From contig CAKTUP010000057.1 of NCBI GenBank assembly GCA_934621705.1, positions 1-12,283 of the forward strand: 12,283 nt of DNA. Direction: 5' to 3'. Each line of letters opens with the position of its first letter. Position 1 is the first letter of the stretch. Under the pieces are notes generated by a model, which saw nothing but the letters and a program-made list of their open reading frames with translations, had not been told where the DNA came from and made no database searches. A program made the position numbers and the translations under genes. Positions 197-11,045 of the stretch are shown here, in pieces. The stretch comes from an uncultured Petrimonas sp. Lineage in GTDB: Bacteria > Bacteroidota > Bacteroidia > Bacteroidales > Dysgonomonadaceae.

Positions 197-199
197 AGA

Positions 200-234
200 G
201 AGCAAAGAGCATTGGGCGTTGAGCAAAGAGTTTC
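200..234. repeat. Degenerate heptad repeat array 1
   Basis: Just after the aminotransferase stop codon there are five consecutive 7-nt units in register, starting at 200, 207, 214, 221 and 228. The pattern is roughly GAGCAAA / GAGCATT / GGGCGTT / GAGCAAA / GAGTTTC. Units 1 and 4 are identical. The 13-mer AGAGCAAAGAGCA (199-211) recurs exactly in another heptad array at 10920-10932. The function is unknown. Confidence 0.6.
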
Positions 235-278
235 GAAACGGTTTTCTATTCACAAAATGGGACGAAACATAACTCCCC

Positions 279-385
279 TTTCAGAACCATTAATTTCTGA
301 AAATCCCGAAGGGATTGAACTAAAATAGCCGTGTGTGAAACGCACGGAAAATGGTGCATTCATCCCCAACCGACCCGAAGGGTCG
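279..385. repeat. Cluster of small palindromes (REP-like intergenic element)
   Basis: Four inverted repeats stand close together between two convergent gene ends. 279-302 has arms TTTCAGAA/TTCTGAAA. 302-316 has AATCCC-GAA-GGGATT. 329-347 has CCGTGTG/CGCACGG with one mismatch. 371-385 has CGACCC-GAA-GGGTCG. Two of them share the core CCCGAAGGG and are followed by TGAAC or TCGAAC. Palindrome clusters with a shared core between 3' gene ends are typical of REP/BIME-type interspersed elements. I recall similar CCCGAAGGG-type elements in Bacteroidota intergenic DNA but cannot search for copies here. They might also act as a bidirectional transcript end, although no clear T-tract follows. Confidence 0.6.
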
Positions 386-411
386 AACACAAGTAAGAAA
401 ACAACGAATTC

Positions 412-2580
412 TCAATTCCACCAATACGTCAGTTTCAGAACCAGCGCCCGGTTGCGTACTTCGCGCGTGTTGGCGAAACAATTATCGGTATAAACAATAA
501 ACAGATCCGATACGGGTTTATATCGCCATTGGAAACGAATGTTCAGATTAGTATTATTCAACTGGTCGTTGTATTGTACGAAAGTAGTTAAATACACCGT
601 TGGAGAAAAGGTTACATCCAATTTAGGCCCAATCAACCAGAAATGCTTGTGTTCGAACGGCGCGGGAAGGCGCATGTTGGTGTAGGTAGCGTTGAGCGTG
701 AAATTCACGTAAGGTTGAAACCGGTACACCATTCGGGCATCAACCATATCGTATTGTCCGTTGAAAAATCCGCCTTTTGTGTAAGTGATCATTCCGTTGA
801 GCGGTTTCCGGTTGTTGGACGTGAACGATATGTAGAAATTGGTGTAATCGTACTGAGTTCCGGCCGGCAGAAACTTGTCACCCGTGTGTGTGGGGTTGAA
901 ATCGTGCATCAGCTTGATGTGGTAATTCTTTATCCCTGCCGAGATACCCGATCGATCGCGGAAGTCCACTTTATAACCGAGATCGAATGTGTGATCCAAC
1001 TTATCGAACTGTGTTGTGTAAAAATCTTCGTATTTGGCGTAAGGCCCGTGTACGGTTACTTTTTTATTCGGTACAAATGAATAACTTATCTCCGGCCGGA
1101 AAGAGATGAAATCGCGACGGCGCACAAATCCGGTTTCGGCCAAGTAATTCGCGCCAACTGCCGTTTCCCGCAATTCTATCCTGAATTTACCGTTATTATA
1201 TACTGCCGATGCTCCCTGCGCAAACTGCCTGTCGGGATTTCCCGGTTGAAAAGAGCGGTGGTAGTAAGCTTTTCCGGTCCACACATTATCGCGCGACGCA
1301 AGATTGGCATCGAATGCGGCAACTCGATTGAATACCCGCTGCGCCCCTTCGCCGAAAGTTTCTTTGTTTACCATCATGAAACCCAAATTGGATCGCGAGA
1401 ATATTTTTCGTTGAGCGGACACTACCGTGAAATTTCGAACTGCGAAGGCATCGGTTTTTTCGGTGGTCATGTTCATTAAACCAATACGCCAGTCTTGTCC
1501 GATTTTTCCACTCACTCGCGCGCCGCCGAGCACCGGAGCGTCCAAGCCGATCCTTCGCGAGAAGAACGGTGTGGTGCCTGGTTCTCCGAAATTGGCAAAT
1601 AAATCGCTGTTTTCAAGAAAAAACTGTCGTTTCTCGGGATAAAAAAGTTCGAAGCGATCGATATTCATTACCTGCTGATCTACTTCCACCTGAGCAAAAT
1701 CCGGATTGTACGTCAAATCTAAGTTCATGGAAGTTCCCATACCTATCTTGGCGTCAAAACCAAAATCTCTCCGGTATCCGGCATCTTCTCCCGCTTCGAA
1801 GTTTCGGTGATATCCGCCGTAAAGATAAGGGATAAGGGAGAAGTTGGTTTTTGGTTTGGGCAAAGGTTCATCGAATTTTAACACTCCGGTGTAGGCTAAC
1901 GAAGCGTGCGGAAACTGACGCGGAACGGGCGCCCAAGCCGATTTTTCATTCAACTTCAAATCGAGACGGCCGAAATTGGCGTACCAAATTTGACTGTTGG
2001 ATGGATACCGGAGCGATTTAAAAGGCATTTTCATTTCAATGATCCATTTATCGGGATAATCTCTCACTTTCAGTTCCACTTTGCTGTCCCAGTTCAGGTT
2101 CATGGCGGATCCATCCGATACCAGCCCGTCCCATATTGCTCCCGATGGCGATGCTCCAAAAGAAAATCCGTTGGTTTGATCGCGGAAAGTATCGAAAACT
2201 GTGAGTAGATTGTCGTTGTTGCCGAAAGCGAAATCCCGGCGGAAAGATTCCGCTATTCGTTTACCGGGGATGGTGTCGTGAAAAATAACCCCCATATACA
2301 AGGCTTTATCGTCATAAGTGAGCATTAATTCCGTTCTTTGTTGTGGATATCCCGTATCGATAGGCGTAACGAGCCGAAAATTCTCGGCTATATTGGCCGC
2401 TTGCCAGTCGGGTTCGTCGAGCACACCGTCGAGCGTGATGCTGCTTTTCATTTTTTTCACCGTATAAACGAAATCTTTGTTGTGGATGTTAATGGAAACA
2501 GAATCGTTTAAAGCTCCTTGCGAGAAAGTTTGAAGAGCAAAAGCACTTGCCAGCACAAAAGATATCCAATATTTAATCAT
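412..2580 (-). CDS. DUF5916 outer-membrane protein with N-terminal CBM9-like domain (paralogue A)
   Basis: The product has 722 residues. It begins with a signal peptide (MIKYW...ALQTFSQG, about 1-21). A CBM9-like sandwich domain follows at about 40-235; its entry motif SITLDGVLDEPDW is at 47-59. The remainder is a DUF5916-type beta-strand-rich region predicted to be an outer-membrane barrel, with FYPEKRQFFLENSDLF near 313-328 and many alternating aromatic strands up to the terminal YWWN. The ATG at 2578-2580 is chosen over an in-frame TTG at 2607. The ATG gives a clean signal peptide and a length matching the 721-residue paralogue, while the TTG lies inside the last codons of the upstream gene. 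The gene follows paralogue B by 14 bp, so co-transcription is likely. The biochemical role of DUF5916 proteins is not established; surface glycan or envelope functions are only suggested by the CBM9-like fold. Confidence 0.88.
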   Translation of the reverse strand: MIKYWISFVLASAFALQTFSQGALNDSVSINIHNKDFVYTVKKMKSSITLDGVLDEPDWQAANIAENFRLVTPIDTGYPQQRTELMLTYDDKALYMGVIFHDTIPGKRIAESFRRDFAFGNNDNLLTVFDTFRDQTNGFSFGASPSGAIWDGLVSDGSAMNLNWDSKVELKVRDYPDKWIIEMKMPFKSLRYPSNSQIWYANFGRLDLKLNEKSAWAPVPRQFPHASLAYTGVLKFDEPLPKPKTNFSLIPYLYGGYHRNFEAGEDAGYRRDFGFDAKIGMGTSMNLDLTYNPDFAQVEVDQQVMNIDRFELFYPEKRQFFLENSDLFANFGEPGTTPFFSRRIGLDAPVLGGARVSGKIGQDWRIGLMNMTTEKTDAFAVRNFTVVSAQRKIFSRSNLGFMMVNKETFGEGAQRVFNRVAAFDANLASRDNVWTGKAYYHRSFQPGNPDRQFAQGASAVYNNGKFRIELRETAVGANYLAETGFVRRRDFISFRPEISYSFVPNKKVTVHGPYAKYEDFYTTQFDKLDHTFDLGYKVDFRDRSGISAGIKNYHIKLMHDFNPTHTGDKFLPAGTQYDYTNFYISFTSNNRKPLNGMITYTKGGFFNGQYDMVDARMVYRFQPYVNFTLNATYTNMRLPAPFEHKHFWLIGPKLDVTFSPTVYLTTFVQYNDQLNNTNLNIRFQWRYKPVSDLFIVYTDNCFANTREVRNRALVLKLTYWWN

Positions 2581-2594
2581 GTCGTTATTATTTT

Positions 2595-4760
2595 TCAATT
2601 CCACCAATACGTCAACTTCAGCACCAGCGCCCGATTACGAACTTCGCGCGTATTGGCATAATAATTATCGGTATAAACAATAAACAGATCCGACACCGGT
2701 TTGTACCGCCACTGGAAGCGGATGTTCAGGTTGGTATTGTTGAGTTGTTCGTTGTATTGCATAAATGTGGTGAGAAATAACTTATCTGTGAAAGTTACAT
2801 CCAGTTTCGGGCCGATGAGCCAGAATTGATGGTGTTCAAAAGGTTGCGGCAGGCGAAGGTTGGTGTACGTTACATTCATCGAGAAATTCACGTAGGGCTG
2901 GAATCTATACACCATCTTTGTATCCACCATATCGTATTTGCCGTTAAAAAATCCGCCTTTGGCAAAGGTAATTATTCCGTTAAACGGTTTTCGGTTGTTG
3001 GATGTGAATATGGTGTAGAAATCGGAGTAATTATAATCGGTTCCGGCCGGTAAAAAATTAGTGCTTACGTGAGTAGGGTCGAAATCCCGCATCAACTTAA
3101 TGTAATAATTGCGCATGCCCGCAGATATTGAAGAACGGTCGCGGAATTCTATCTTATATCCCAAATCCAGTTCGTGGTCTAATTTATCGAAACTGTGAGT
3201 AGTATAGTTTTTGAACTTTGAATAAGGACCGTGAATAGTTACTCTTTTGTTTGGAATAAAAAAGTATGCCAGCTCGGGGCTTAGAGAAATGTAATTTCTT
3301 CGACGAACGAAACCTGTTTCTGCAAGGTAGTTTTCACCAACTGCCGCTTGATCTAAATTGACAAGAATATTGCCTTTGCTGTATTTTATGGAAGTTCCCT
3401 GTGCGTATTGATTATCGGGGTTATTCGGTTGAAATGACCGGTGATAAAACAGTTTGCCGATCCACTCGTTGTTTTTGCTGGCCAAATTGAAATCCAGCGC
3501 GGCAACCCGATTAAAAAGCGAAGTACCGTCCGGTTTGTTCAAATATTCCTTGTTGACGAACATAAAACTGATGTTGGAGCGGGCAAGGATTTTCTGTTGC
3601 AAAGACAACACGGTAAAGTTTCTGGACAGATGATTGGTGGTTTTCTCGGTAGTCATATTCATAAATCCGAGACGGAGTGTGTTGTTCAATTTACCGCTCA
3701 ACCGCGCTCCGCCCAAAACGGGAGCATCAAGTCCGATGCGGCGCGAAAAGAATGGCGTGAGCCCTGTGTTTCCGTAATTGGCAAATAAATCGCTGTTTTC
3801 GAGAAAAAACTGTCGTTTTTCGGGATAGAACAGTTCAAAACGATCGATATTCATAACCTGTTGATCAACGTCTACTTGAGCGAAATCGGGATTGTAGGTT
3901 AAATCCAAATTCATAGCCGTAGATAATCCTATCTTTGCGTCCATACCGAAGTCACTGCGATAACCTGCTGCTTCACCTGCTTCAACGTTCCGGTGATATC
4001 CGCCATACAGATAAGGGATGAGCGAGAAATTCATTCTTGGCTTAGGCAAAGGCTCTTCAAACTGCAATACACCGGTATATGCCAGCGACGAATGCGGAAA
4101 CTGACGGGGAACGGGCGCCCACGCCGACTTTTCGTTCGATTTTAAATCCAATCGGCCGAAATTGGCATACCACGTCTGGCTGTTAGCCGGATAACGGATG
4201 GATTTAAACGGGATCTTCATTTCCGTAACCCATTTATCGGAATAGTTTTTCAACTTCAGTTCCACTTTGCTGTCCCACTCGCTGTTTTTGGTCTCACCCG
4301 AACGGATTCCGTCGGAAATGGCTCCCGAAGCCGAGAATTCAAACGTGTATCCGTTGGTTTGATCGCGAAAAGTATCGAAAACGGAAAGGAAGTTGTCGTT
4401 GTTGTTGAACACATAATCCCTGCGGAACGATTCAAATATACGCTTACCGGGAATGGTATCGTGAAAAATGACCGCCACATAAATTGCCTTATCATCGTAA
4501 ACCAGCATCACTTCCGATTTTTGTTTGGGAAAACCGGTATCCACCGGCTGAACAAGAAAGAAATTATCTGCTTTGTTTGCCGTTTGCCAATCGGGTTCTT
4601 CCAGCACGCCGTCGAGTGTAATGGAGCCTTTCATCTTTTTGGCGACGTACACAAAATTCTTGTTGTGAATATTTATATCCAGCGAGTCCGACGGAATTTG
4701 TTGCGGAAACAATTGAAAACAAGACAGCAAACCGATTAAAAAGATGAAAACTTTCTTCAT
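2595..4760 (-). CDS. DUF5916 outer-membrane protein with N-terminal CBM9-like domain (paralogue B)
   Basis: The product has 721 residues and the same architecture as the gene downstream. The signal peptide is MKKVFIFLIGLLSCFQLFPQQ. The CBM9-like domain carries SITLDGVLEEPDW at 46-58, and the DUF5916 barrel region carries FYPEKRQFFLENSDLF near 312-327 and ends in YWWN. By eye the two proteins agree at roughly two thirds or more of positions along the whole length, with few gaps. The last 50 or so residues differ only at a CF/YY pair. LLSC resembles a lipobox but lacks a typical residue at -2 and is followed by more hydrophobic sequence, so signal peptidase I cleavage is more likely. The ATG at 4758-4760 is the first in frame and directly starts the signal peptide. 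This is the promoter-proximal gene of the pair. Function is unknown beyond a probable outer-membrane location. Confidence 0.88.
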   Translation of the reverse strand: MKKVFIFLIGLLSCFQLFPQQIPSDSLDINIHNKNFVYVAKKMKGSITLDGVLEEPDWQTANKADNFFLVQPVDTGFPKQKSEVMLVYDDKAIYVAVIFHDTIPGKRIFESFRRDYVFNNNDNFLSVFDTFRDQTNGYTFEFSASGAISDGIRSGETKNSEWDSKVELKLKNYSDKWVTEMKIPFKSIRYPANSQTWYANFGRLDLKSNEKSAWAPVPRQFPHSSLAYTGVLQFEEPLPKPRMNFSLIPYLYGGYHRNVEAGEAAGYRSDFGMDAKIGLSTAMNLDLTYNPDFAQVDVDQQVMNIDRFELFYPEKRQFFLENSDLFANYGNTGLTPFFSRRIGLDAPVLGGARLSGKLNNTLRLGFMNMTTEKTTNHLSRNFTVLSLQQKILARSNISFMFVNKEYLNKPDGTSLFNRVAALDFNLASKNNEWIGKLFYHRSFQPNNPDNQYAQGTSIKYSKGNILVNLDQAAVGENYLAETGFVRRRNYISLSPELAYFFIPNKRVTIHGPYSKFKNYTTHSFDKLDHELDLGYKIEFRDRSSISAGMRNYYIKLMRDFDPTHVSTNFLPAGTDYNYSDFYTIFTSNNRKPFNGIITFAKGGFFNGKYDMVDTKMVYRFQPYVNFSMNVTYTNLRLPQPFEHHQFWLIGPKLDVTFTDKLFLTTFMQYNEQLNNTNLNIRFQWRYKPVSDLFIVYTDNYYANTREVRNRALVLKLTYWWN

Positions 4761-4795
4761 TTAGGGAAAAATGTATTTTTCGAATGAATATTTTC

Positions 4796-4803
4796 CAAAA
4801 TTA
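4796..4803 (-). promoter_or_regulatory. Possible -7 element (TAATTTTG) for the DUF5916 pair
   Basis: On the minus strand TAATTTTG fits the Bacteroidota -7 consensus TAnnTTTG. It lies 35 bp upstream of the ATG at 4760, in AT-rich DNA after the terminator of the preceding gene. No convincing TTG -33 box is present at 19-21 bp, so this is weak. Confidence 0.3.
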
Positions 4804-4861
4804 ACAAATAATGTAATGTGAGCGATTATAAGTCAGATTTTTTTAATCCATTTAATGAAAA

Positions 4862-4889
4862 AACCCGATAAATACGCTTTTATCGGGTT
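4862..4889 (-). terminator. Rho-independent terminator of the TonB_C gene
   Basis: Read on the minus strand, a perfect 11-bp stem (AACCCGATAAA/TTTATCGGGTT) with a 6-nt loop is followed at once by a run of T (bases 4863 to 4858). It starts 23 bp after the TAA stop at 4913-4915. It separates the TonB_C transcript from the DUF5916 operon on the same strand. Confidence 0.85.
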
Positions 4890-4912
4890 GTATTCTATCG
4901 TTAAAAACGTAG

Positions 4913-5764
4913 TTACGGCTTCAAACTCAACGCTGGTATTGGTTCCTCATCAATAGAAAAATCTATGGGCAGAAGGCACTTTACGTTCACCTTTTCGCCG
5001 TTGTTCTCGCCCGGAATCCATTTAGACATCAGGCTAAGCACCCGAATGGCTTCGTTGTCGAGTTGGGGATTCAGCCCCTGCACCACTTCAATATTGGAAA
5101 TGGAGCCGTCGGCAGCTACTATGAACGAGCACAGTATTCTGCCTTCGATTCCCTGCTGGCGGGCTTCCTTGGGATATCGGAGCTGGTGTGAGATAAATCC
5201 GGCCAGTTCTCTTTCGCCGTGCGGATATTGCGGCATTTTGTCCACGATGGAAAACACTTCGGAATTGGCGATTTCGGTATTTGTTTTAGCGTATGTTGCT
5301 GCCGGAGTGGTAGTGGTTGTCCGGGCTACTGCGTTCGCGTTTTTGTTGAGGCGGAAATACATCGGAACGTAGCTTTTGGAGCGGACGATCTCGTCTTTGA
5401 ATTTTGCCGGACGCCAGGGCGGCATGGCCTGCAAAATGCGCAATGCCTCCTTATCGAGCGATGAATCTGCACGATGGATCAAGTCGAAATTAGTCAGTGT
5501 GCCGTCTTTTTCAACGATAAACGTGTACACTACTAATCCCTGAACATTTCGCTCGGAAGCATTGGCAGGATAACGAAGCGTGTTGGATATAAACCGGTGC
5601 ATTTCGGCTGGGCCTCCCGTGTAAATGGGCGGGATGTCGGGATCTTCTATTATTCTCCCTTCGTAAACAGGAGGAGGAGTGGGAGATGGGGCGACTGGGT
5701 GACTGGGCGACTGGGCGACTGCGCCAAAAGCACATAGCGCAATAAATAATGCAATGAAATTCAT
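4913..5764 (-). CDS. Secreted protein with two tandem TonB C-terminal domains
   Basis: The product has 283 residues. A signal peptide or N-terminal anchor (MNFIALFIALCAFGAVAQ, 1-18) is followed by a short Pro/Ser-rich stretch and two TonB_C domains at about 54-139 and 171-270. Each has the typical order: 'LRYP' helix end, 'G-x-V/I-x-x-x-F-I-V-x-x-D-G' hairpin, 'LD-x-E-A-x-R-(I/V)-L' helix, 'W-x-P-(A/G)' turn and a final strand. A Thr/Ala-rich linker and 'EVFSIVDKMPQYPHG' precede the second domain. TonB_C domains bind TonB boxes of outer-membrane receptors. This protein has no long Pro-rich periplasm-spanning arm, so it may be an accessory or periplasmic binding version and not a classical energy transducer. 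An in-frame ATG at 5872 would add 36 residues, but it lies upstream of the predicted transcription start, so 5764 is chosen. The codons around the signal-peptide cleavage site are built from an 8-nt tandem repeat. Confidence 0.85.
   Translation of the reverse strand: MNFIALFIALCAFGAVAQSPSHPVAPSPTPPPVYEGRIIEDPDIPPIYTGGPAEMHRFISNTLRYPANASERNVQGLVVYTFIVEKDGTLTNFDLIHRADSSLDKEALRILQAMPPWRPAKFKDEIVRSKSYVPMYFRLNKNANAVARTTTTTPAATYAKTNTEIANSEVFSIVDKMPQYPHGERELAGFISHQLRYPKEARQQGIEGRILCSFIVAADGSISNIEVVQGLNPQLDNEAIRVLSLMSKWIPGENNGEKVNVKCLLPIDFSIDEEPIPALSLKP
5683..5722. repeat. 8-nt tandem repeat inside the TonB_C coding sequence
   Basis: On the plus strand four units of GCGACTGG/GTGACTGG/GCGACTGG/GCGACTGC run from 5691 to 5722, preceded by a poorer unit, GAGATGGG, at 5683. 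They encode AVAQSPSHPVA, the end of the signal peptide and the start of the mature protein. Eight is not a multiple of three, so gain or loss of one unit would shift the frame. Confidence 0.75.
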
Positions 5765-5804
5765 TCTGTTTTTGTTGTTTATTTTGCTTTTCAGATTTTC
5801 CAAC

Positions 5805-5839
5805 GAATAGCTAATAGCTAAAAGCCAAAAGCCAATCGC
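5805..5839. repeat. Degenerate heptad repeat array 2 (leader of the TonB_C gene)
   Basis: Read on the minus strand, five contiguous 7-nt units all start with GC: GCGATTG, GCTTTTG, GCTTTTA, GCTATTA and GCTATTC (unit starts at 5839, 5832, 5825, 5818 and 5811). The array lies between the predicted promoter and the ATG at 5764, so it would be transcribed as part of the leader. Related GCTnnTn units occur at 7609-7629. Confidence 0.7.
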
Positions 5840-5851
5840 TTTAACAGCGAG

Positions 5852-5883
5852 CAAAGATAACAAAAATCTCAAAGTTTTTGAAA
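5852..5883 (-). promoter_or_regulatory. Promoter of the TonB_C gene (TTTC-N20-TATCTTTG)
   Basis: On the minus strand the -7 box TATCTTTG (5859 to 5852) fits the Bacteroidota consensus TAnnTTTG exactly. The -33 box TTTC (5883 to 5880) is one base off TTTG, with a spacer of 20. The expected transcription start is near 5847, giving a leader of about 80 nt. Confidence 0.6.
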
Positions 5884-5889
5884 GTAGTG

Positions 5890-5920
5890 TTTGAGATTAA
5901 CAAATAAATTCATAGATTTG
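5890..5920 (+). promoter_or_regulatory. Promoter of the AbgT-family gene (TTTG-N19-TAGATTTG)
   Basis: TTTG (5890-5893), a 19-bp spacer and TAGATTTG (5913-5920) match the Bacteroidota primary sigma-factor consensus in both boxes and in spacing. Transcription should start near 5925, about 155 nt ahead of the ATG. Its -33 box lies only 6 bp from that of the divergent TonB_C promoter. Confidence 0.65.
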
Positions 5921-5972
5921 CAACGGTTTTTCATCATCGTGGTAATTCTGTTTTAAATTTTCCACGAAAAAT

Positions 5973-6011
5973 GCAGCCGGCTACGGAAGTGAAGCGCCTT
6001 TTGCCGGCTGC
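5973..6011 (+). promoter_or_regulatory. Leader hairpin upstream of the AbgT-family gene
   Basis: Perfect 9-bp GC-rich arms GCAGCCGGC (5973-5981) and GCCGGCTGC (6003-6011) enclose 21 nt, followed by TAATTTTAA. It lies within the predicted leader, about 50 nt after the expected transcription start. It could be an attenuator-like or protein-binding hairpin. The T-run is short, so a call as terminator is not secure, and no known riboswitch class was recognised. Confidence 0.5.
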
Positions 6012-6033
6012 TAATTTTAACTCGTCTGTTGGG

Positions 6034-6062
6034 TGACCTAACGTAGAAATCCTTTCAGGTCA
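6034..6062 (+). promoter_or_regulatory. Second leader hairpin, close to the AbgT-family start
   Basis: Arms TGACCT (6034-6039) and AGGTCA (6057-6062) enclose 17 nt and are followed by six A and the start region. A 6-bp stem is modest evidence on its own. Together with the hairpin at 5973-6011 it suggests a structured leader. Confidence 0.35.
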
Positions 6063-6067
6063 AAAAA

Positions 6068-6075
6068 TAACTTTG
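6068..6075 (+). promoter_or_regulatory. Possible second -7 element (TAACTTTG) next to the start codon
   Basis: TAACTTTG fits TAnnTTTG and ends 4 bp before the ATG at 6080. A transcript from it would begin at or next to the ATG, so it would be leaderless. No -33 TTG is present at the right distance, so support is weak. Confidence 0.25.
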
Positions 6076-6079
6076 CATA

Positions 6080-7606
6080 ATGAATGTACATACAGAGAAG
6101 CCCAAAAAAGGTTTTTTCGGTTTTGTAGAACGGGCAGGTAATGCTTTGCCGCATCCGGCGCTATTGTTCGGCCTGTTTGCGGTAATAACGTTGTTGTTTT
6201 CCGCTATCGGCGGATTGTTGGGGTGGACGGGAGTTCATCCGGCAACTGGCGAAACGGTTGAAGTGTTAAATTTACTGTCGCGAGACGGAATCCATCGCAT
6301 TCTATTGGAAATGGTGGGCAATTACACCGGCTTTGCTCCCCTGGGAATTGTTATGGTTGCGCTGCTTGGCATTGGCGTGGCGGAAAGCAGCGGATTGATA
6401 AAGGCTTCCATAAACGCGTTGCTGGTGAAAGCGCCGCCCCGATCTATCACTTTTATGGTGGTTTTCACGGGAATATTATCCAATATGGCTTCCGATTTGG
6501 GCTATCTGCTCATCATACCGTTGGCCGGTGTTATTTTCCATTCGCTCGGGCGTCATCCCATTGCCGGAATGTCGGCCGCTTTCGCGGGTGTGAGCGGAGG
6601 ATTCAGCGCTAATATCTTCATCGGTACTATCGACCCGTTGTTAGCCGGATTATCCACCGAAGCCGCCCATATTCTCGACCCCGAATATTACGTAATGCCC
6701 ACGGCCAATTATTATTTTATGGCGGTTTCTACGTTCGTGATCACTTTTGCCGGAACATTCGTTACTTCCAAATGGATTGAACCCCGGTTGGGAAAATACA
6801 CCGGAACCGTGGAACGGGAAGAAATTATTCAGCCTACGGCTTTGGAAAGGAAAGGATTGCGTCGCGCGGGGCTGGTAATTCTTGGCTGGGCAATTGTTTT
6901 TGCCATTGGGTTGATTCCCGAAAACGGTTTGTTGCGGGGAATGGACGGTACCATCCTGCATTCGCCGCTTTTGCGCGGATTCATCGCGGTGCTGTTTTTG
7001 GTTGCAGCAAGTGCGGGAGCCGTTTACGGATACACCGTGGGAACATTTAAAACGCAGAACGATTTGATCAACGGGATGAACACGAGTTTCAAAAGCCTGG
7101 TATCGTTTCTTGTTCTGGTGTTCTTTGCTGCCCAGTTTGTGGCGTGGTTCCGCTGGAGTAACCTGGGATTGCTGCTTGCCATAAACGGAGCCGAAGTGTT
7201 GCAGAATACCAACATAGGCCTTATTCCGCTGGTGGTTGTTTTCGTTATTTTTGCCGGTTTTATGAATCTGTTTATGGGAAGCGCTTCGGCCAAGTGGGCA
7301 ATTCTGGGGCCGGTGTTTATACCCATTTTTATGTTGCTCGGTTATTCGCCCGAGTTATCGCAGGCCGTTTACCGGGTGGGCGACAGCGTTACCAATATTA
7401 TTTCTCCCATGATGAGTTTCTTTGCCCTGATCATTGTTTATTACCAGAAATACGACAAGAAATCGGGTATCGGAACCATTATGGCTACCATGATGCCTTA
7501 TTCCATTGTCTTTTTCGTGGTATGGACATTGCTGCTTATCGTCTGGATATTGCTGGGATTGCCGTTGGGTCCCGAGGCACCGCTGTATTACGGTGGCGCT
7601 GGGTGA
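6080..7606 (+). CDS. abgT: AbgT-family inner-membrane transporter
   Basis: The 508-residue product is highly hydrophobic, with many membrane segments and the length usual for the AbgT family. Members include E. coli AbgT (p-aminobenzoyl-glutamate uptake) and MtrF/YdaH (antifolate/sulfonamide efflux). The signature GSASAKW is at 400-406 and YRVGDSVTNIISPM at 431-444. Residues S403, W406, P424, R432, D435 and P443 have the same mutual spacing as the functional set I recall from MtrF (S417, W420, P438, R446, D449, P457). D185 in IDPLLAG is a candidate for the conserved Asp of the first half. The family is well supported; whether this protein imports or exports, and which compound, cannot be decided. 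The gene stands alone, divergent from the TonB_C gene, with its own promoter. ATG 6080 starts the usual short cytoplasmic tail (EKPKKGFFGFVERAGN). Confidence 0.92.
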   Translation: MNVHTEKPKKGFFGFVERAGNALPHPALLFGLFAVITLLFSAIGGLLGWTGVHPATGETVEVLNLLSRDGIHRILLEMVGNYTGFAPLGIVMVALLGIGVAESSGLIKASINALLVKAPPRSITFMVVFTGILSNMASDLGYLLIIPLAGVIFHSLGRHPIAGMSAAFAGVSGGFSANIFIGTIDPLLAGLSTEAAHILDPEYYVMPTANYYFMAVSTFVITFAGTFVTSKWIEPRLGKYTGTVEREEIIQPTALERKGLRRAGLVILGWAIVFAIGLIPENGLLRGMDGTILHSPLLRGFIAVLFLVAASAGAVYGYTVGTFKTQNDLINGMNTSFKSLVSFLVLVFFAAQFVAWFRWSNLGLLLAINGAEVLQNTNIGLIPLVVVFVIFAGFMNLFMGSASAKWAILGPVFIPIFMLLGYSPELSQAVYRVGDSVTNIISPMMSFFALIIVYYQKYDKKSGIGTIMATMMPYSIVFFVVWTLLLIVWILLGLPLGPEAPLYYGGAG

Positions 7607-7608
7607 TG

Positions 7609-7629
7609 GCTGTTGGCTTTCAGCTCATC
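7609..7629. repeat. Short heptad repeat array 3 after the AbgT-family stop
   Basis: Three contiguous 7-nt units, GCTGTTG, GCTTTCA and GCTCATC, begin 3 bp after the TGA at 7604-7606. They resemble the GC(T)nnTn units that array 2 shows on the opposite strand. Three units alone would be weak; the resemblance supports the call. Confidence 0.45.
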
Positions 7630-7673
7630 AGTGTAAGTTATTGTCTTACTCCAACACAAATAACCAATCGCTC

Positions 7674-7705
7674 TTGTCATAAACCATGAAAAATTTCTAT
7701 CTTTG
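7674..7705 (+). promoter_or_regulatory. Promoter of the receiver/ATP-grasp gene (TTG-N21-TATCTTTG)
   Basis: TATCTTTG (7698-7705) fits TAnnTTTG exactly, and TTG (7674-7676) lies 21 bp upstream. The expected start is near 7710, leaving a leader of about 155 nt. That leader carries a palindrome and a heptad array. Confidence 0.6.
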
Positions 7706-7744
7706 TTTTTGCATAGATAATCAGATTTACGGAATTTCGCTTTT

Positions 7745-7765
7745 GAGACGCAAGCGTTGCGTCTC
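7745..7765. repeat. Perfect palindrome GAGACGCAA-GCG-TTGCGTCTC
   Basis: Nine-bp perfect arms (7745-7753 and 7757-7765) enclose a 3-nt loop within the predicted leader of the downstream gene. I recall similar GAGACGCAA.. palindromes as dispersed elements in Bacteroidota and cyanobacteria, so this may be a copy of a REP/MITE-like family. It is not followed by a T-tract, so it is not a typical terminator. Confidence 0.6.
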
Positions 7766-7802
7766 TACGTGGGAATCCCGTCTTCGGACTATCGGTTTCC
7801 GT

Positions 7803-7872
7803 CATCTGTCATTAAACATCCATCATCTATCATCAAACACTCATCACCCATCATCCAACACCCAACATGAAC
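7803..7872. repeat. Heptad repeat array 4, running into a start codon
   Basis: Ten contiguous 7-nt units in perfect register (unit starts every 7 bp from 7803 to 7866) all begin with CA. The consensus is CA(T/C)(C/T)(C/T/A)A(T/A), for example CATCCAT, CATCTAT and CACCCAT. Unit 10, CATGAAC, contains the ATG (7867-7869) of the downstream gene. After one register slip, CATCCGT CATTAAA (7886-7899) resembles units 1-2, so the array may once have reached into the coding region. The plus strand is almost free of G. Confidence 0.8.
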
Positions 7873-10800
7873 CTATCCACATCTCCATCCGTCATTAAAG
7901 CCCACGATTTGCACCGTTTCCGGTTTCGCGATACCCCGTTCGTAAAACTGATGAACCGGCGTATCTACAACGTGCTCTTCATTGCTTCGCAATACGATAT
8001 GTTTATTCTGGAAGACGACGGGCGGGTGGACGAACAAATATTCAACGAATACACATCGCTCAACCTGCGCTATCCGCCGCGTTTTACGCAGGTGAGCACG
8101 GTGAAGCAGGGCATGGAAGAACTCCGCTCCAACCGCTACGAACTTATCATTTGCATGCCCAATATGGACAACCACGAAATTTTTGCCCAGGCGAAAGTCA
8201 TCAAGCATAAATTTCCGTATATCCCCATCGTGCTGCTCACGCCGTTTTCGAAATCGGTTACGCGGGTGCTTGAGAAAGAGGATGTTTCGGGCATGGACTA
8301 TGTTTTTAGCTGGTTGGGAAATGCCGATCTGCTGCTTGCCATCATCAAGCTGATCGAGGACAAAATGAACGTGGAAAACGATGTGCGGACGGTTGGCGTA
8401 CAAACGATTATGCTGGTGGAAGACTCCGTCCGTTTTTATTCTTCGGCGTTGTCGCTGCTCTATAAATATGTGCTTAACGAGTCGAAAGAATTTTCCAAAG
8501 AAGCGCTCAACGACCACTTGCGTATGATGCGTATGCGCGGACGTCCCAAAATTTTGCTTGCCCGTAACTACGAAGAAGCGGTGAGCCTTTACAAGAAATA
8601 CGGCGACAATATGCTGGGCGTACTCTCGGATATGAGTTTTAACCAAAACGGACAGAAAGACAAAACGGCGGGTAAAAAGTTGGGAGAATGGATACGGAGC
8701 AAAGATAAATACATACCCATTATATACGCTTCGTCGGAGTCCGAAAACCGGAAATACGCCGCCGAAGTAGATGCCCGGTTTATCGATAAGAATTCGAAAA
8801 CCTTTCCGTTGGATCTTCACCGGGCGGTGAAAGAAAACCTGGGATTCGGCGATTTTATTATTGTGGCGCCGAAATCGCAGGAAGAGATTTTCAGGATTAA
8901 AAACCTGAAAGAGTTGCAGTTGAATATCCGTCAGATTCCCGACGATTCGCTGTATTATCACCTTTCGAGAAACCATTTTTCGCGGTTTTTCTACACCCGC
9001 GCCATGTTTCCCGTGGCCGAAATGCTGAAGAAAATACACGTATCGGCTTATGCCAATATGGACGACGCGCGCGAGCTTATTTATCAGGCCATCGTTGAGT
9101 ACCGGCGGATGAAGAACACGGGCGTGGTGGCCGTTTTCGAGAAAGACCGCTTCGATAAATATTCCAATTTTGCCCGAATCGGCGAAGGTTCGTTGGGCGG
9201 AAAGGGCAGGGGACTGGCTTTTATCGGGCAAATCGTGAAAACGCACATAGAGCTAAATAATTACGAGAATTTTCCGGTTACCACGCCTAAAACGGTGGTG
9301 CTGTGCACCGATATTTTCGATGAATTTATGGAAGCCAATAAACTTTACGATATTGCGCTTTCGTACCGCCCCGATGAAGACATTCTGAAACATTTCTTGG
9401 CGGCTAAGCTGCCCAAACGGTTAGTCAGCGATTTTCTGGTTTTTTTCGATGCCATATCGTCGCCCATCGCCATTCGTTCGTCGAGTATGCTCGAAGACTC
9501 TCAGTATCAGCCTTTCGCCGGAATTTATTCCACTTACATGATCCCTTACGTAAGCGACAAGTACGAAATGGTTCGCCTGCTCAACAACGCCATCAAGGCG
9601 GTTTACGCGTCGGTTTTCTACAAAGACAGCAAGGCGTATATGTCTGCCACTCAGAATCTTATAGACCAGGAGAAAATGGCGATCGTGCTTCAAGAGGTGG
9701 TGGGTTCCCAGTACGGAAATCTTTTTTATCCGGCCATTTCGGGGGTTGCCCGCTCCATTAATTATTATCCGCTTGGCAACGAAAAAACGGAAGACGGCAT
9801 TGTGAATATGGCTATGGGACTGGGAAAATACATTATGGACGGCTATCAGGGCTTGCGTTTTTCTCCGTTGCATCCTAAAAATATATTGCAGTTAAGCTCG
9901 CTGGACACGGCGCTGAGAGACACGCAAACGCAGTTTTACGCGCTCGATCTGGAATCGATGTCGAAGGACTTCACTGTTGACGACAGTTTCAACCTGCAAA
10001 AGCTACGCATCAGGCAAGCCGAAGCCGACAGCCCGTTGCGGTATGTGTCATCCACTTACGATCCGAATGACCAGATTATCCGCGACGGATTTTACGAGGG
10101 AGGCCGAAAAATCATTTCGTTTGCCAATATTCTGAAACACGATACGCTCCCACTTGCCGAAACGCTGGATAAGGTGCTGAAAGTGGGGCAGCAGGAAATG
10201 GGGCGGCCCGTGGAAATAGAATTTGCCGTGGATGTGAAAAGCCGCGAGGAAGCCGAATTCTTTTTGTTGCAGATCCGCCCCATTGTGGACAGCAAGGAGG
10301 TGGTGAACGAAGATTTGGAAAATATCGATAAAAACGATACGTTGCTCTATTCGCAAAATGCGCTCGGCAACGGCATATCCAACGATGTGTTTGATGTAGT
10401 TTACGTGAAAACTCGTGATTTTTCTGCCACCAATAATCCGGCGATAGCCCGCGAAATTGAGAAGATTAACGTGGGGTTTGGCGAAGCCGATAAAAACTAC
10501 GTGCTGATTGGCCCGGGACGCTGGGGTTCATCGGATCCGTGGCTGGGCATTCCCGTAAAATGGGCGCACATAAGCCAGGCGCGGGTGATTGTGGAATCGG
10601 GATTGGAGAATTACAGGATAGAACCGAGTCAGGGCACCCATTTCTTTCAGAACCTGACATCGTTTGGCGTGGGTTATTTCACCATTAACTCTTTCCTTGA
10701 AAACGACGGTTTTTTTGATGAGAATTTTCTCGATGCCCAACCTGCTGTGTTTGAAACCGGCTTTATCCGTCACGTTCGTTTCGAACAGCCTTTATCGATA

Positions 10801-10875
10801 AAGATCAGCGGAAAGAAAAGAATTGGCGTAGTGATGAAACCAACATCGGGTGATGCAAGTTCCAACTCGCATTAA
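7867..10875 (+). CDS. Two receiver-like domains fused to a PPDK/PEP-synthase-type ATP-grasp domain
   Basis: The product has 1002 residues. At about 33-165 lies a receiver-like fold whose phosphoacceptor Asp and acidic pair are replaced (YELIICMPNMD, 91-101). At about 178-325 a second receiver keeps the key residues: E185/D186 in LVEDS, D255 in VLSDMSF, S289 in IIYAS and K308 in FIDKN. From about 435 to 806 comes a PPDK_N ATP-grasp module, with GEGSLGGKG (K446), PIAIRSSSMLED (R537), LQEVV (608-612), VEIEFAVD (E783/E785) and LLQIRPI (Q802, R804). The C-terminal block has GPGRWGSSDPWLGIPV (882-897) and PSQGTHFFQNL (920-930). The swivelling phosphohistidine domain and the PEP/pyruvate TIM barrel of PEP synthase are absent, so it should not be called PEP synthase. 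A cytoplasmic ATP-dependent phosphotransfer or sensing role is inferred. The ATG at 7867 is the only one upstream of M29; the conserved-looking part begins near residue 16, so the exact start is slightly uncertain. Confidence 0.85.
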   Translation: MNLSTSPSVIKAHDLHRFRFRDTPFVKLMNRRIYNVLFIASQYDMFILEDDGRVDEQIFNEYTSLNLRYPPRFTQVSTVKQGMEELRSNRYELIICMPNMDNHEIFAQAKVIKHKFPYIPIVLLTPFSKSVTRVLEKEDVSGMDYVFSWLGNADLLLAIIKLIEDKMNVENDVRTVGVQTIMLVEDSVRFYSSALSLLYKYVLNESKEFSKEALNDHLRMMRMRGRPKILLARNYEEAVSLYKKYGDNMLGVLSDMSFNQNGQKDKTAGKKLGEWIRSKDKYIPIIYASSESENRKYAAEVDARFIDKNSKTFPLDLHRAVKENLGFGDFIIVAPKSQEEIFRIKNLKELQLNIRQIPDDSLYYHLSRNHFSRFFYTRAMFPVAEMLKKIHVSAYANMDDARELIYQAIVEYRRMKNTGVVAVFEKDRFDKYSNFARIGEGSLGGKGRGLAFIGQIVKTHIELNNYENFPVTTPKTVVLCTDIFDEFMEANKLYDIALSYRPDEDILKHFLAAKLPKRLVSDFLVFFDAISSPIAIRSSSMLEDSQYQPFAGIYSTYMIPYVSDKYEMVRLLNNAIKAVYASVFYKDSKAYMSATQNLIDQEKMAIVLQEVVGSQYGNLFYPAISGVARSINYYPLGNEKTEDGIVNMAMGLGKYIMDGYQGLRFSPLHPKNILQLSSLDTALRDTQTQFYALDLESMSKDFTVDDSFNLQKLRIRQAEADSPLRYVSSTYDPNDQIIRDGFYEGGRKIISFANILKHDTLPLAETLDKVLKVGQQEMGRPVEIEFAVDVKSREEAEFFLLQIRPIVDSKEVVNEDLENIDKNDTLLYSQNALGNGISNDVFDVVYVKTRDFSATNNPAIAREIEKINVGFGEADKNYVLIGPGRWGSSDPWLGIPVKWAHISQARVIVESGLENYRIEPSQGTHFFQNLTSFGVGYFTINSFLENDGFFDENFLDAQPAVFETGFIRHVRFEQPLSIKISGKKRIGVVMKPTSGDASSNSH

Positions 10876-10880
10876 ATACG

Positions 10881-10911
10881 TGCGCTTTGCGGTTTCAAAC
10901 TGCACAGCGCA
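10881..10911 (+). terminator. Hairpin just after the receiver/ATP-grasp gene (possible transcript end)
   Basis: Beginning 6 bp after the TAA at 10873-10875, arms TGCGCTTTGC (10881-10890) and GCACAGCGCA (10902-10911) pair with one mismatch. The intervening bases include GTTT/AAAC, which lengthens the stem. No T-tract follows, so it may be a processing or stability hairpin and not a true intrinsic terminator. Confidence 0.4.
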
Positions 10912-10936
10912 TGGAACATAGAGCAAAGAGCACAGA
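10902..10936. repeat. Degenerate heptad repeat array 5
   Basis: Five contiguous 7-nt units start at 10902, 10909, 10916, 10923 and 10930, of the form (G/A)CAnnG(A/C), such as GCACAGC, GCAAAGA and GCACAGA. The first unit forms part of the right arm of the hairpin at 10881-10911. The 13-mer AGAGCAAAGAGCA (10920-10932) is shared with array 1. Confidence 0.6.
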
Positions 10937-11045
10937 CTTAGCCGGGTGAAGTTTTAGATAAATCTGTTTTAACAAAATATAACGCTGTCTCGCGCCAACT
11001 TTTTCCTGTTTTTGCATCTTATAATAGAACAGAAAATAAACCGAA

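What the first reader, a model, noticed from the sequence alone, without database searches (positions are those of the whole stretch)
200..10936. Five gene-boundary stretches share 7-nt periodicity but not one sequence
Seen directly: 200-234, 5805-5839, 7609-7629, 7803-7872 and 10902-10936 consist of consecutive heptamers in register. Each array has its own degenerate consensus (GAGCAnn; GCTnTTn; GCTnnnn; CAYYnAn; GCAnAGA). All lie within about 100 bp of a start or stop codon. Known heptanucleotide STRR arrays (described in cyanobacteria) are near-identical copies. Here the period is kept while the letters drift and differ between sites. That suggests either a repeat-generating process with a fixed 7-nt step or selection on spacing.
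Basis: partly seen in the sequence, partly recalled or inferred. Interest (0 to 1): 0.7.

Follow-up and report, generated by a model that had tools for sequence, protein, structure and literature searches.

The report
Seven-letter DNA repeats at gene edges
This bacterium and many of its relatives carry worn arrays of seven-letter DNA repeats between genes; such arrays change in steps of seven and differ between sister species, a kind of repeat already known from other bacteria, although why the step is seven is still unexplained.

Summary
Three of five stretches (5805-5839, 7803-7872, 10902-10936) are clear 7-nt arrays; 200-234 is weak alone but repeats the GAGCAAA unit; 7609-7629 is chance. 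An 8-nt array at 5689-5721 was missed. 'Not one sequence' is overstated: sites 1, 2 and 5 contain units of the form AGCNAAN.

Syntenic sister species lack the arrays, so they are recent gains. In 40 Bacteroidota slices and in tiles of two sister genomes, 7 is the commonest intergenic repeat period, with unrelated units. In closely related phage contigs chosen for carrying such arrays, 7 of 8 distinct indels of 3 nt or more were 7, 14, 21 or 28 nt, all in arrays. At two sites sister species carry different heptamer arrays. Arrays lie near stop codons more often than random placement predicts, and 16 of 43 have an inverted partner.

Best reading: local slippage or template switching with a preferred 7-nt step makes arrays that then decay; some may be reused as hairpins or leaders. 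Closest known: cyanobacterial STRRs, Xanthomonas (GGGANTN)n arrays and TAACTGA repeats. Apparently new are the breadth of units and same-site replacement in Bacteroidota.

The parts
198..411 (.). Lineage-specific insertion holding site 1: the heptamer stretch 200-234 (GAGCAAA GAGCATT GGGCGTT GAGCAAA GAGTTTC) right after the stop codon 194-196 of the upstream gene, then short palindrome-like segments
   Evidence: 16/28 at lag 7, not significant alone. L002 joins the sequence matching 2-197 directly to that matching 412 onward, and L007 nearly so. GAGCAAA is an array family in L007's genome.
5799..5845 (-). Site 2: about 47-nt insertion with five AGCYAAW-type heptamers, in the 5' leader between a promoter-like TATCTTTG and the start codon of the TonB-like gene
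   Evidence: 23/28 at lag 7; expected 0.003 per window; absent from L002, L003 and L007. The unit holds the palindrome AGCT and the array folds on itself (z -1.9).
5852..5859 (-). Promoter-like -7 element TATCTTTG upstream of site 2; conserved as CAAAGATA in L002, L003 and L007
   Evidence: alignment; that TAnnTTTG is the Bacteroidetes -7 motif is recalled, from no call
5689..5721 (.). Octamer array GGGCGACT x4, inside the N-terminal coding part of the TonB-like gene
   Evidence: 23/25 at lag 8; not in L002, L003 or L007; never seen in 300 simulations
7609..7629 (+). Claimed site 3; not distinguishable from chance
   Evidence: 7/14 at lag 7; 97 such places expected per window, 80 seen
7745..7768 (.). 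Palindrome GAGACGCAAGCGTTGCGTCTCTAC (GTAG-ended on the - strand) in the same expanded 5' leader as site 4
   Evidence: sequence; hairpin; a similar GTAGAGACG..CGTCTC palindrome stands at L001's counterpart of site 5
7698..7705 (+). Promoter-like TATCTTTG of the PPDK_N gene; in L002, L003 and L007 it lies close to the start codon with no array between
   Evidence: read by eye; motif identity recalled
7798..7872 (+). Site 4: about ten CATCNAN-like heptamers with a 21-nt super-period, running into the start codon of the PPDK_N gene
   Evidence: 41/63 at lag 7 over 7803-7872; TRF period 21, score 72; absent in L002, L003, L007; L001 has AACGTCA AACATCA AACATGA ACC here, 15/19 at lag 7
10902..10937 (+). 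Site 5: GAGCAAA-type heptamers in an insertion of about 68 nt after the stop codon at 10873-10875; its first half is one arm of a hairpin 10879-10913
   Evidence: 20/28 at lag 7; expected 0.013; insertion relative to L001, L002, L003 and L007; hairpin z -2.75

Best explanation
The arrays are products of a local tandem-duplication process, most likely replication slippage with template switching, that prefers a step of 7 nt (secondarily 8) almost regardless of the unit's sequence. A short chance or inherited seed in a permissive gap (after a stop codon, or in the 5' leader) is copied in whole units, in blocks of one to four. Point mutation blurs the units, further duplications spread the variants locally, and the array is lost or overwritten. 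That gives arrays with the same period but different, drifting letters at each site. When the template switch goes to the other strand, an inverted partner arises and the pair can fold as a hairpin. SHOWN: the period-7 excess, absence in sisters, changes in whole heptamers (in phage contigs), local similarity of units, inverted partners, closeness to stop codons. INFERRED: that a polymerase does it, why the step is 7, growth from seeds in general (one site documented), and that some hairpins are reused as terminators or leaders.
For: Intergenic lag-7 arrays: 22 against 0.3 (Markov-2) in 81 sequences; 10 against 0.0 in G004 and 12 against 0.0 in G003 tiles (see the full report for how tiles were chosen); 15 against 0.4 in 40 Bacteroidota slices, found in 7 of 40. 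By fundamental period, pooled: 7 = 38 (one Markov replicate: 1), then 22 = 22, 21 = 11, 8 = 10, 14 = 8, 11 = 7. Array GC runs from 14 to 69% in 41 arrays. Window arrays absent in syntenic sisters; further absent or unrelated sites. Local expansion: G004 has about 19 units where G002 has one GAGCAAAGA. Closely related phage contigs: distinct indels of 3 nt or more were 7, 7, 7, 9, 14, 21, 21, 28, all in or at arrays. Unit identity falls from 0.852 to 0.791 over separations 1-4 in 29 end-trimmed arrays, 9 with p < 0.05. Inverted partner 16 of 43 arrays against 1 of 43 control.
Against: The unit-number evidence comes from phage contigs of unknown host, not strains of this species, and they were chosen because they hold arrays. 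Changes by whole units are expected of any 7-nt array, so they show active evolution rather than why 7. After end-trimming only 9 of 29 arrays reach p < 0.05 for local similarity and 19 of 29 lie in the right direction. Closeness to stop codons is not predicted by slippage alone. In the 80 PPDK_N loci taken alone, period 22 (17 arrays) slightly exceeds 7 (15). Some unit preference exists: AGCNAAN fits 7 of 60 arrays against 1.4 expected (a form picked after seeing the window, and 6 of the 7 lie in the window, G003 or G004), and GAGCAAA recurs in many genomes, which hints at copying between sites or sequence preference. Not every array is private: G001 has a related two-unit GTTTCAG at G004's C11:102667 site, and L328/L335 share AAACATC units. 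E. coli shows none in 100 kb, but that is only 13 kb of intergenic DNA.
Confidence: 0.72

Rival explanations
1. Selection on 7-nt spacing: a protein that contacts seven nucleotides per protomer (for example a cold-shock-type single-strand binder, or S1) reads mRNA leaders and tails, so the period is kept while letters drift.
For: Sites 2 and 4 lie in 5' leaders. MacGregor 2015 notes one CspB per heptamer (passage). Of 27 AAACATC-type occurrences printed (from 30 loci fetched for 49 hits), 14 have an ATG that opens at least 60 codons within 70 nt downstream on the same strand; the opposite orientation was not counted. Closeness to stop codons.
Against: Sister orthologues of the same genes lack the arrays. 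Units are unrelated between many sites. Unit columns are not unequally conserved (4 of 60 arrays p < 0.05, about chance, low power for short arrays). ATG registers relative to the AAACATC unit are scattered (4 of 14 in register).
Confidence: 0.12
2. The arrays are passengers or parts of small mobile elements (REP, MITE or phage) that insert near gene ends; the heptamers travel with them.
For: Site 1 lies in a 214-nt insertion and site 4 beside a GTAG-ended palindrome; L001 carries such a palindrome where the window has site 5, and G001 one where G004 has an array. The same heptamer families recur in many genomes and in phage contigs.
Against: The unit differs at two orthologous sites in sisters. 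One array grew in place from a seed (G004 C18). Site 2 is an insertion of about 47 nt of which 35 are array. I noticed no constant ends at the few junctions read by eye, but did not test for them or for target-site duplications.
Confidence: 0.1
3. The arrays are functional hairpin terminators or transcript stabilisers, built from inverted heptamers and maintained by selection.
For: Inverted partners at 16 of 43 arrays. L049's paired arrays stand where L033, L050 and L051 have what read as GC hairpins with T-runs. L069 and L049 pairs fold far better than shuffles, z -7.4 and -4.4. Arrays lie near stop codons.
Against: 27 of 43 arrays have no inverted partner at that cut-off, including both window arrays in the test (7836-7869 p 0.59; 10909-10937 p 0.06). 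I see no clear T-run after the L049 and L069 pairs. L034, L052 and L063 manage with under 20 nt at the L061/L069 site. It does not explain 5'-leader arrays.
Confidence: 0.06

Closest known systems
Cyanobacterial STRR heptamer repeats (one passage in PMC2670836; Vioque 1997 seen only as a reference-list entry in PMC2858038)
   Same: 7-bp units, tandem, reported in promoter or intergenic DNA, able to form hairpins, function unknown
   Different: Other phylum; the window's arrays are short and strongly degenerate; units differ between sister species at two sites.
Xanthomonas GGGAATC / (GGGANTN)n and Nostoc GGGGA(C/T)T arrays (Rehm et al. 2015, PMC4692102; section 10 read, other parts as passages)
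   Same: Heterogeneous heptamers, 89-93% intergenic, close to the upstream ORF (average 28 nt), inverted pairs in 70 and 75 cases, extensive length and sequence variation between close species
   Different: [quoted passage not shown] here many unrelated units, many of them AT-rich, with similar anatomy, and arrays often absent from sisters, so G-quadruplexes cannot be the general reason
TAACTGA direct repeats of Beggiatoaceae, Cyanobacteria and five Bacteroidetes (MacGregor 2015, PMC4679880; passages)
   Same: Heptamers near start codons; in two Bacteroidetes, arrays beside 'other heptamer direct repeats' and close relatives with shorter intergenic regions without obvious repeats
   Different: One fixed heptamer with rare variants; it is not in this window
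Long simple sequence repeats of prokaryotes with excess heptanucleotides (Mrazek et al. 2007, known here only through passages in PMC4679880 and PMC4692102)
   Same: Excess of period 7 and the proposal of polymerase slippage with a 7-nt contact
   Different: Presumably defined on near-exact repeats, so that degenerate arrays as here would mostly be missed (inference; paper not seen)

Membership tests
Cyanobacterial STRR | tandem units of 7 bp | tested here: met
   sites 2, 4 and 5
Cyanobacterial STRR | repeats that can form a hairpin | tested here: inconclusive
   site 2 self-folds z -1.9, site 5 overlaps a hairpin z -2.75, site 4 array unpaired in the predicted fold, site 1 z 0.2
   65-82% lag-7 identity at sites 2, 4 and 5; near-perfect arrays do occur in the relative G004
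Xanthomonas (GGGANTN)n arrays | unit GGGANTN | tested here: not met
   no exact tandem pair in the window; two overlapping one-mismatch matches at 10592-10611, inside the PPDK_N gene; 44 of 200 shuffles do as well
Xanthomonas (GGGANTN)n arrays | inverted partner arrays and proximity to the upstream stop | tested here: inconclusive
   seen in relatives: 16 of 43 inverted, 27 of 45 within 15 nt of a stop; not reached by the two window arrays tested for a partner
TAACTGA repeats | tandem TAACTGA | tested here: not met
   0 matches of two units with up to 3 mismatches
Polymerase-slippage heptamer LSSRs | unit number varies in whole units between close genomes | tested here: inconclusive
   met in phage contigs with such arrays; not testable for this species
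Polymerase-slippage heptamer LSSRs | slippage by a replicative polymerase | not testable with these tools
   needs an experiment

The most novel reading that the evidence does not exclude
The 7-nt period belongs to the machinery, not the sequence. Bacteroidota (and by the same anatomy Xanthomonas and cyanobacteria) have a replication or repair step that copies about seven nucleotides at a time next to stop codons and in leaders, whatever the letters, and switches strand to make inverted partners. Each gap is repeatedly erased and re-seeded, so sister species show different heptamers at the same site.
Probability: 0.27. Interest if true: 0.75.

Novelty: new member of a known kind. Interest (0 to 1): 0.45.

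Why it matters
According to the papers seen, heptamer excess in bacteria has been known since 2007, with only a hypothesis for the number seven. Bacteroidota offer a natural experiment: many unrelated units, one favoured period, arrays absent from or replaced in sister species, and phages whose arrays change by 7, 14, 21 or 28 nt between close relatives. This argues against unit-specific explanations such as G-quadruplexes and points to a property of replication or repair that can be tested directly. The arrays also seem to break short-read assemblies: five contigs seen here begin or end in or within 20 nt of one.

Tried and rejected
Column-restricted variation (a fixed skeleton under selection): 4 of 60 arrays p < 0.05, not supported. 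In-register start codons for AAACATC arrays: suggested by L001 and the window, but only 4 of the 14 occurrences with a downstream ATG are in register (L328, L333, L335, L339), not pursued. Arrays as known RNA elements: no Rfam match in the window at gathering scores. Site 3: rejected as chance. A megablast of the PPDK_N gene against E. coli found nothing and told nothing. Strain-level comparison within the species: not possible, no genome is held for the window and the genome collections hold one genome per species; phage contigs were used instead.

Weak points of the counts. Gene calls in the intergenic tests were crude (longest ORFs of at least 80 or 100 aa), so stops are more reliable than starts. 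In one search and both arms of a pair count as separate arrays; the 16 arrays are about 9 sites. Tiles: for G003, contigs C1, C13 and C17 (210 of 313 kb) were taken because one search had listed GAGCAAA hits there, and they hold 11 of the 12 intergenic arrays (two of these are the sides of one assembly gap); the other 103 kb hold 1. For G004, the first 20 kb of contigs C1-C20 (252 kb) hold 6 and the rest of C11 and C18 (400 kb, taken for length, also listed) hold 4. The 80 PPDK_N loci and the 40 slices (every fifth genome of the phylum sample, up to 20 kb each) were not chosen for arrays. Arrays in L205-L224 come from contigs chosen for GAGCAAA-type hits, and searches were not limited to intergenic arrays. 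One search compared only loci L001-L080; for L049 it also listed L036, L047 and L060 as aligned straight through, which I did not inspect. In one search the script counted three events twice because L240 and L252 are near-identical; I collapsed them by hand to 8. The L245/L259 pair (11% diverged, one 3-nt indel outside arrays) is left out by its 94% filter. At G003 C13:79446 no orthologous anchors were found. The GAGCAAA phylum search gives 12 of 296 genomes with at least 5 hits, and 4 of 296 with at least 5 reversed-letter control hits (G140 15); hits overlap within one array.


Full report
WHAT IS IN THE WINDOW. The window is a stretch of a Bacteroidota genome close to Proteiniphilum: its PPDK_N-domain protein is 89-91% identical over the best segment to L001, L002, L003 and L007 and 75-80% to the other 24 loci among L004-L028, most of them labelled Proteiniphilum, Fermentimonas, Petrimonas or Bacteroidales. 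Genes: two DUF5916 proteins (- strand), a TonB_C protein (-), an AbgT-family transporter (+), the PPDK_N protein (+), and a partial protein with no Pfam match (+). No whole genome is held for it.

CHECK OF THE FIVE STRETCHES. Lag-7 identities are 16/28, 23/28, 7/14, 41/63 and 20/28. Against 300 Markov-2 simulations of the window, sites 2, 4 and 5 are far beyond chance (expected 0.003, 0 and 0.013 per window), site 1 is not (1.8), and site 3 is plainly chance (97 expected, 80 seen). Units AGCAAAG occur at sites 1 and 5 and AGCYAAW at site 2, so these share the form AGCNAAN, although the majority consensus of sites 1 and 5 fits only 4 of its 5 fixed positions; site 4 is CATCNAN-like with a 21-nt super-period. 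An additional 8-nt array lies at 5689-5721 inside the TonB-like gene.

THE ARRAYS ARE RECENT GAINS. L002, L003 and L007 are collinear with much of the window, without the AbgT gene. In L002 the sequence matching 2-197 is followed at once by the sequence matching 412 onward, so 198-411 with site 1 is missing; L007 is the same to within a few bases; L003 gives no match to 2-197. At site 2 all three sisters lack about 47 nt, between a TATCTTTG promoter-like element and the start codon. At site 4 the sisters have short leaders, while L001, whose contig begins there, has AACGTCA AACATCA AACATGA ACC, the same kind of unit. At site 5 the window has about 68 nt that the others lack, and L001 has a GTAGAGACG...CGTCTCTAC palindrome there.

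IT IS FOUND WIDELY IN RELATIVES AND IN THE PHYLUM. In 81 sequences (80 loci plus the window, 1.44 Mb) intergenic lag-7 arrays number 22 against 0.3 in Markov-2 sequence; lag 8 gives 15 against 0.7, lag 14 gives 15, lag 10 gives 9, and no other lag from 4 to 15 exceeds 6. In tiles of two sister genomes, G004 (652 kb) has 10 against 0.0 and G003 (313 kb) 12 against 0.0. In G003 the only other lags above 2 are the harmonics 14 and 21; in G004 lag 11 gives 7 besides the harmonics, and lags 3 and 10 give 3. The G003 figure is inflated by choice: 11 of its 12 lie in three contigs taken because one search listed GAGCAAA hits there, and the other 103 kb hold 1; in G004 the contigs taken by number alone (252 kb) hold 6 of the 10. 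In slices of up to 20 kb from 40 Bacteroidota genomes (every fifth of the phylum sample, 641 kb) there are 15 at lag 7, in 7 of 40 slices, 7 at lag 8 in 3 slices, and otherwise only harmonics above 3; 100 kb of E. coli K-12 has no intergenic array at any lag from 3 to 21, but that is only 13 kb of intergenic DNA. Assigning each array one fundamental period gives, pooled, 38 at 7, 22 at 22, 11 at 21, 10 at 8, 8 at 14, 7 at 11 and at most 5 elsewhere. Period 7 leads in the G003, G004 and 40-slice sets, but in the 80 loci alone period 22 gives 17 against 15 at 7. Coding arrays favour multiples of three, with 9 at period 7. Units range from AATTGAC and TTATGAT to GTTGGCG, and GC from 14 to 69% in 41 longer arrays. 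The GAGCAAA family is very uneven: with up to 3 mismatches 69 forward and 37 reverse hits in G004 (several per array) against 0 and 0 for the reversed-letter control, control level in G006-G008; with up to 2 mismatches 84 of 296 phylum genomes have a hit and 12 have at least 5, while 4 have at least 5 control hits.

HOW THE ARRAYS CHANGE. (a) Growth from a seed, one case: G004 C18:2363-2501 has about 19 units just after a stop codon; G002 has one GAGCAAAGA there and G003 GAGTGGGG. (b) Steps of seven: 40 alignments of related phage contigs (192 kb, at least 94% identity) gave eight distinct indels of 3 nt or more, namely 7, 7, 7, 9, 14, 21, 21 and 28, all in or at heptamer arrays; seven of eight are multiples of 7. 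They come from L256/L257, L240/L252, L240 and L252 against L246, and L283/L287. Terminase and portal genes show L256, L240 and L283 to be phages; hosts are unknown, and the contigs were chosen for carrying arrays. Most of the other alignments have 0-7 substitutions and say little. (c) Drift along the array: unit identity falls with separation, 0.852, 0.843, 0.828, 0.791 for one to four units apart in 29 end-trimmed arrays, 9 with p < 0.05 and 19 with p < 0.5; untrimmed, 17 of 41 with p < 0.05. G004 C11:92666-92795 passes from TTTTTAG through CTCTTTG to TTCTTTA, and a G249 contig switches from GGACTGA to GCAATGA in register. (d) Replacement: at G004 C18:94880 (CAAACAT units) G002 has 24 nt and no array, while G003 has two other heptamer arrays (11/15 and 16/23 at lag 7); at G004 C11:175216 (GAACCAG units) G001 has a CAAACAT-type array (15/22). 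At G004 C11:162461 neither G002 nor G001 shows the array, and G001 has a GTAG palindrome; G003 C13:90469 faces 14 nt in G004. Against this, at G004 C11:102667 G001 has two related GTTTCAG units, so that array may be shared. L061 and L069 carry related but different units where L034, L052 and L063 have under 20 nt. L077's array is absent from L072, 92% identical upstream.

PLACEMENT AND PAIRING. Among 45 intergenic lag-7 arrays beside a stop codon, 27 lie within 15 nt of it against 17.3 expected from random placement in the same gaps (sd 2.8, paired arms counted apart); lag 8 gives 7 of 13 against 3.7; repeats of other periods show 20 of 71 against 20.1. Sixteen of 43 arrays (about nine sites) have an inverted partner within 150 nt against 1 of 43 for a reversed, uncomplemented control; the two window arrays in that test do not reach it (p 0.59 and 0.06). 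L049's paired arrays stand where L033, L050 and L051 have what read as GC hairpins followed by T-runs, and the L049 and L069 pairs fold much better than shuffles (z -4.4 and -7.4).

INTERPRETATION. Absence from sisters, steps of whole units, local similarity of units and different units at one site fit a mutational process better than selection for spacing. The excess of 7 over most other periods across unrelated units is the part that needs a machine; slippage with about seven nucleotides in contact with the polymerase was proposed by Mrazek and co-workers, known to me through PMC4679880 and PMC4692102. I infer strand switching from the inverted partners. Closeness to stop codons is not explained by slippage and may reflect tolerance or use. 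AAACATC-type units often precede an ATG (14 of 27 printed occurrences), but I did not count the opposite orientation.

COMPARISON WITH PRINT. Rehm et al. [quoted passage not shown] MacGregor 2015 describes TAACTGA arrays, including Bacteroidetes cases with other heptamers and array-less close relatives (passages). Cyanobacterial STRRs are usually 7-bp and can form hairpins (passage). My seven literature searches (open-licence papers only) listed no survey of degenerate heptamer arrays in Bacteroidota, but they were narrow and subscription papers are not covered.

Noticed in passing
window 5689-5721: Octamer array GGGCGACT x4 inside the TonB-like gene, absent from L002, L003 and L007; period 8 is a second, weaker mode in relatives (10 intergenic arrays).
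   Followed up: partly
window 7745-7768; L001 3014-3041; L228, L252, L258: GTAG-ended palindromes GTAGAGACG...CGTCTC(TAC), REP-like, twice at sites where a relative carries a heptamer array, and in several phage contigs; the passages seen of PMC3733652 do not list GTAG repeats in Bacteroidetes.
   Followed up: partly
window 310-395: Short palindrome-like segments (AATCCCGAAGGGATT, CCGTGTGTGAAACGCACGG, CGACCCGAAGGGTCG) within the 214-nt insertion absent from L002 and L007.
   Followed up: no
L047 19943-19997, L051 4800-4851, L057 12560-12675, L064 8636-8694, L071 22735-22797: A separate class of intergenic tandem repeats with a period of 22 nt in the PPDK_N loci, many of them Parabacteroides (17 arrays in the 80 loci, 22 pooled; examples).
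   Followed up: no
window 6080-7606: The AbgT transporter gene lies between DNA that is nearly continuous in L002 and L003, and gives no nucleotide match in L001-L080, so it is probably a lineage-specific insertion.
   Followed up: no
L240 677-1924 (-): A phage portal gene runs into a heptamer array that encodes a repetitive C-terminal tail (..DNGQLRMDNGQLRMDNSQ..); three 7-nt units give a 7-residue repeat.
   Followed up: no
L205, L206, L209, L211; L001 start: Assembly contigs begin or end in, or within 20 nt of, heptamer arrays, so short-read MAGs probably undercount long arrays.
   Followed up: no
L328 and L335: Apparently orthologous genes in G004 and G001 (ORF of 258 aa) both carry AAACATC heptamers just upstream of the start codon, an array shared between species.
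   Followed up: no
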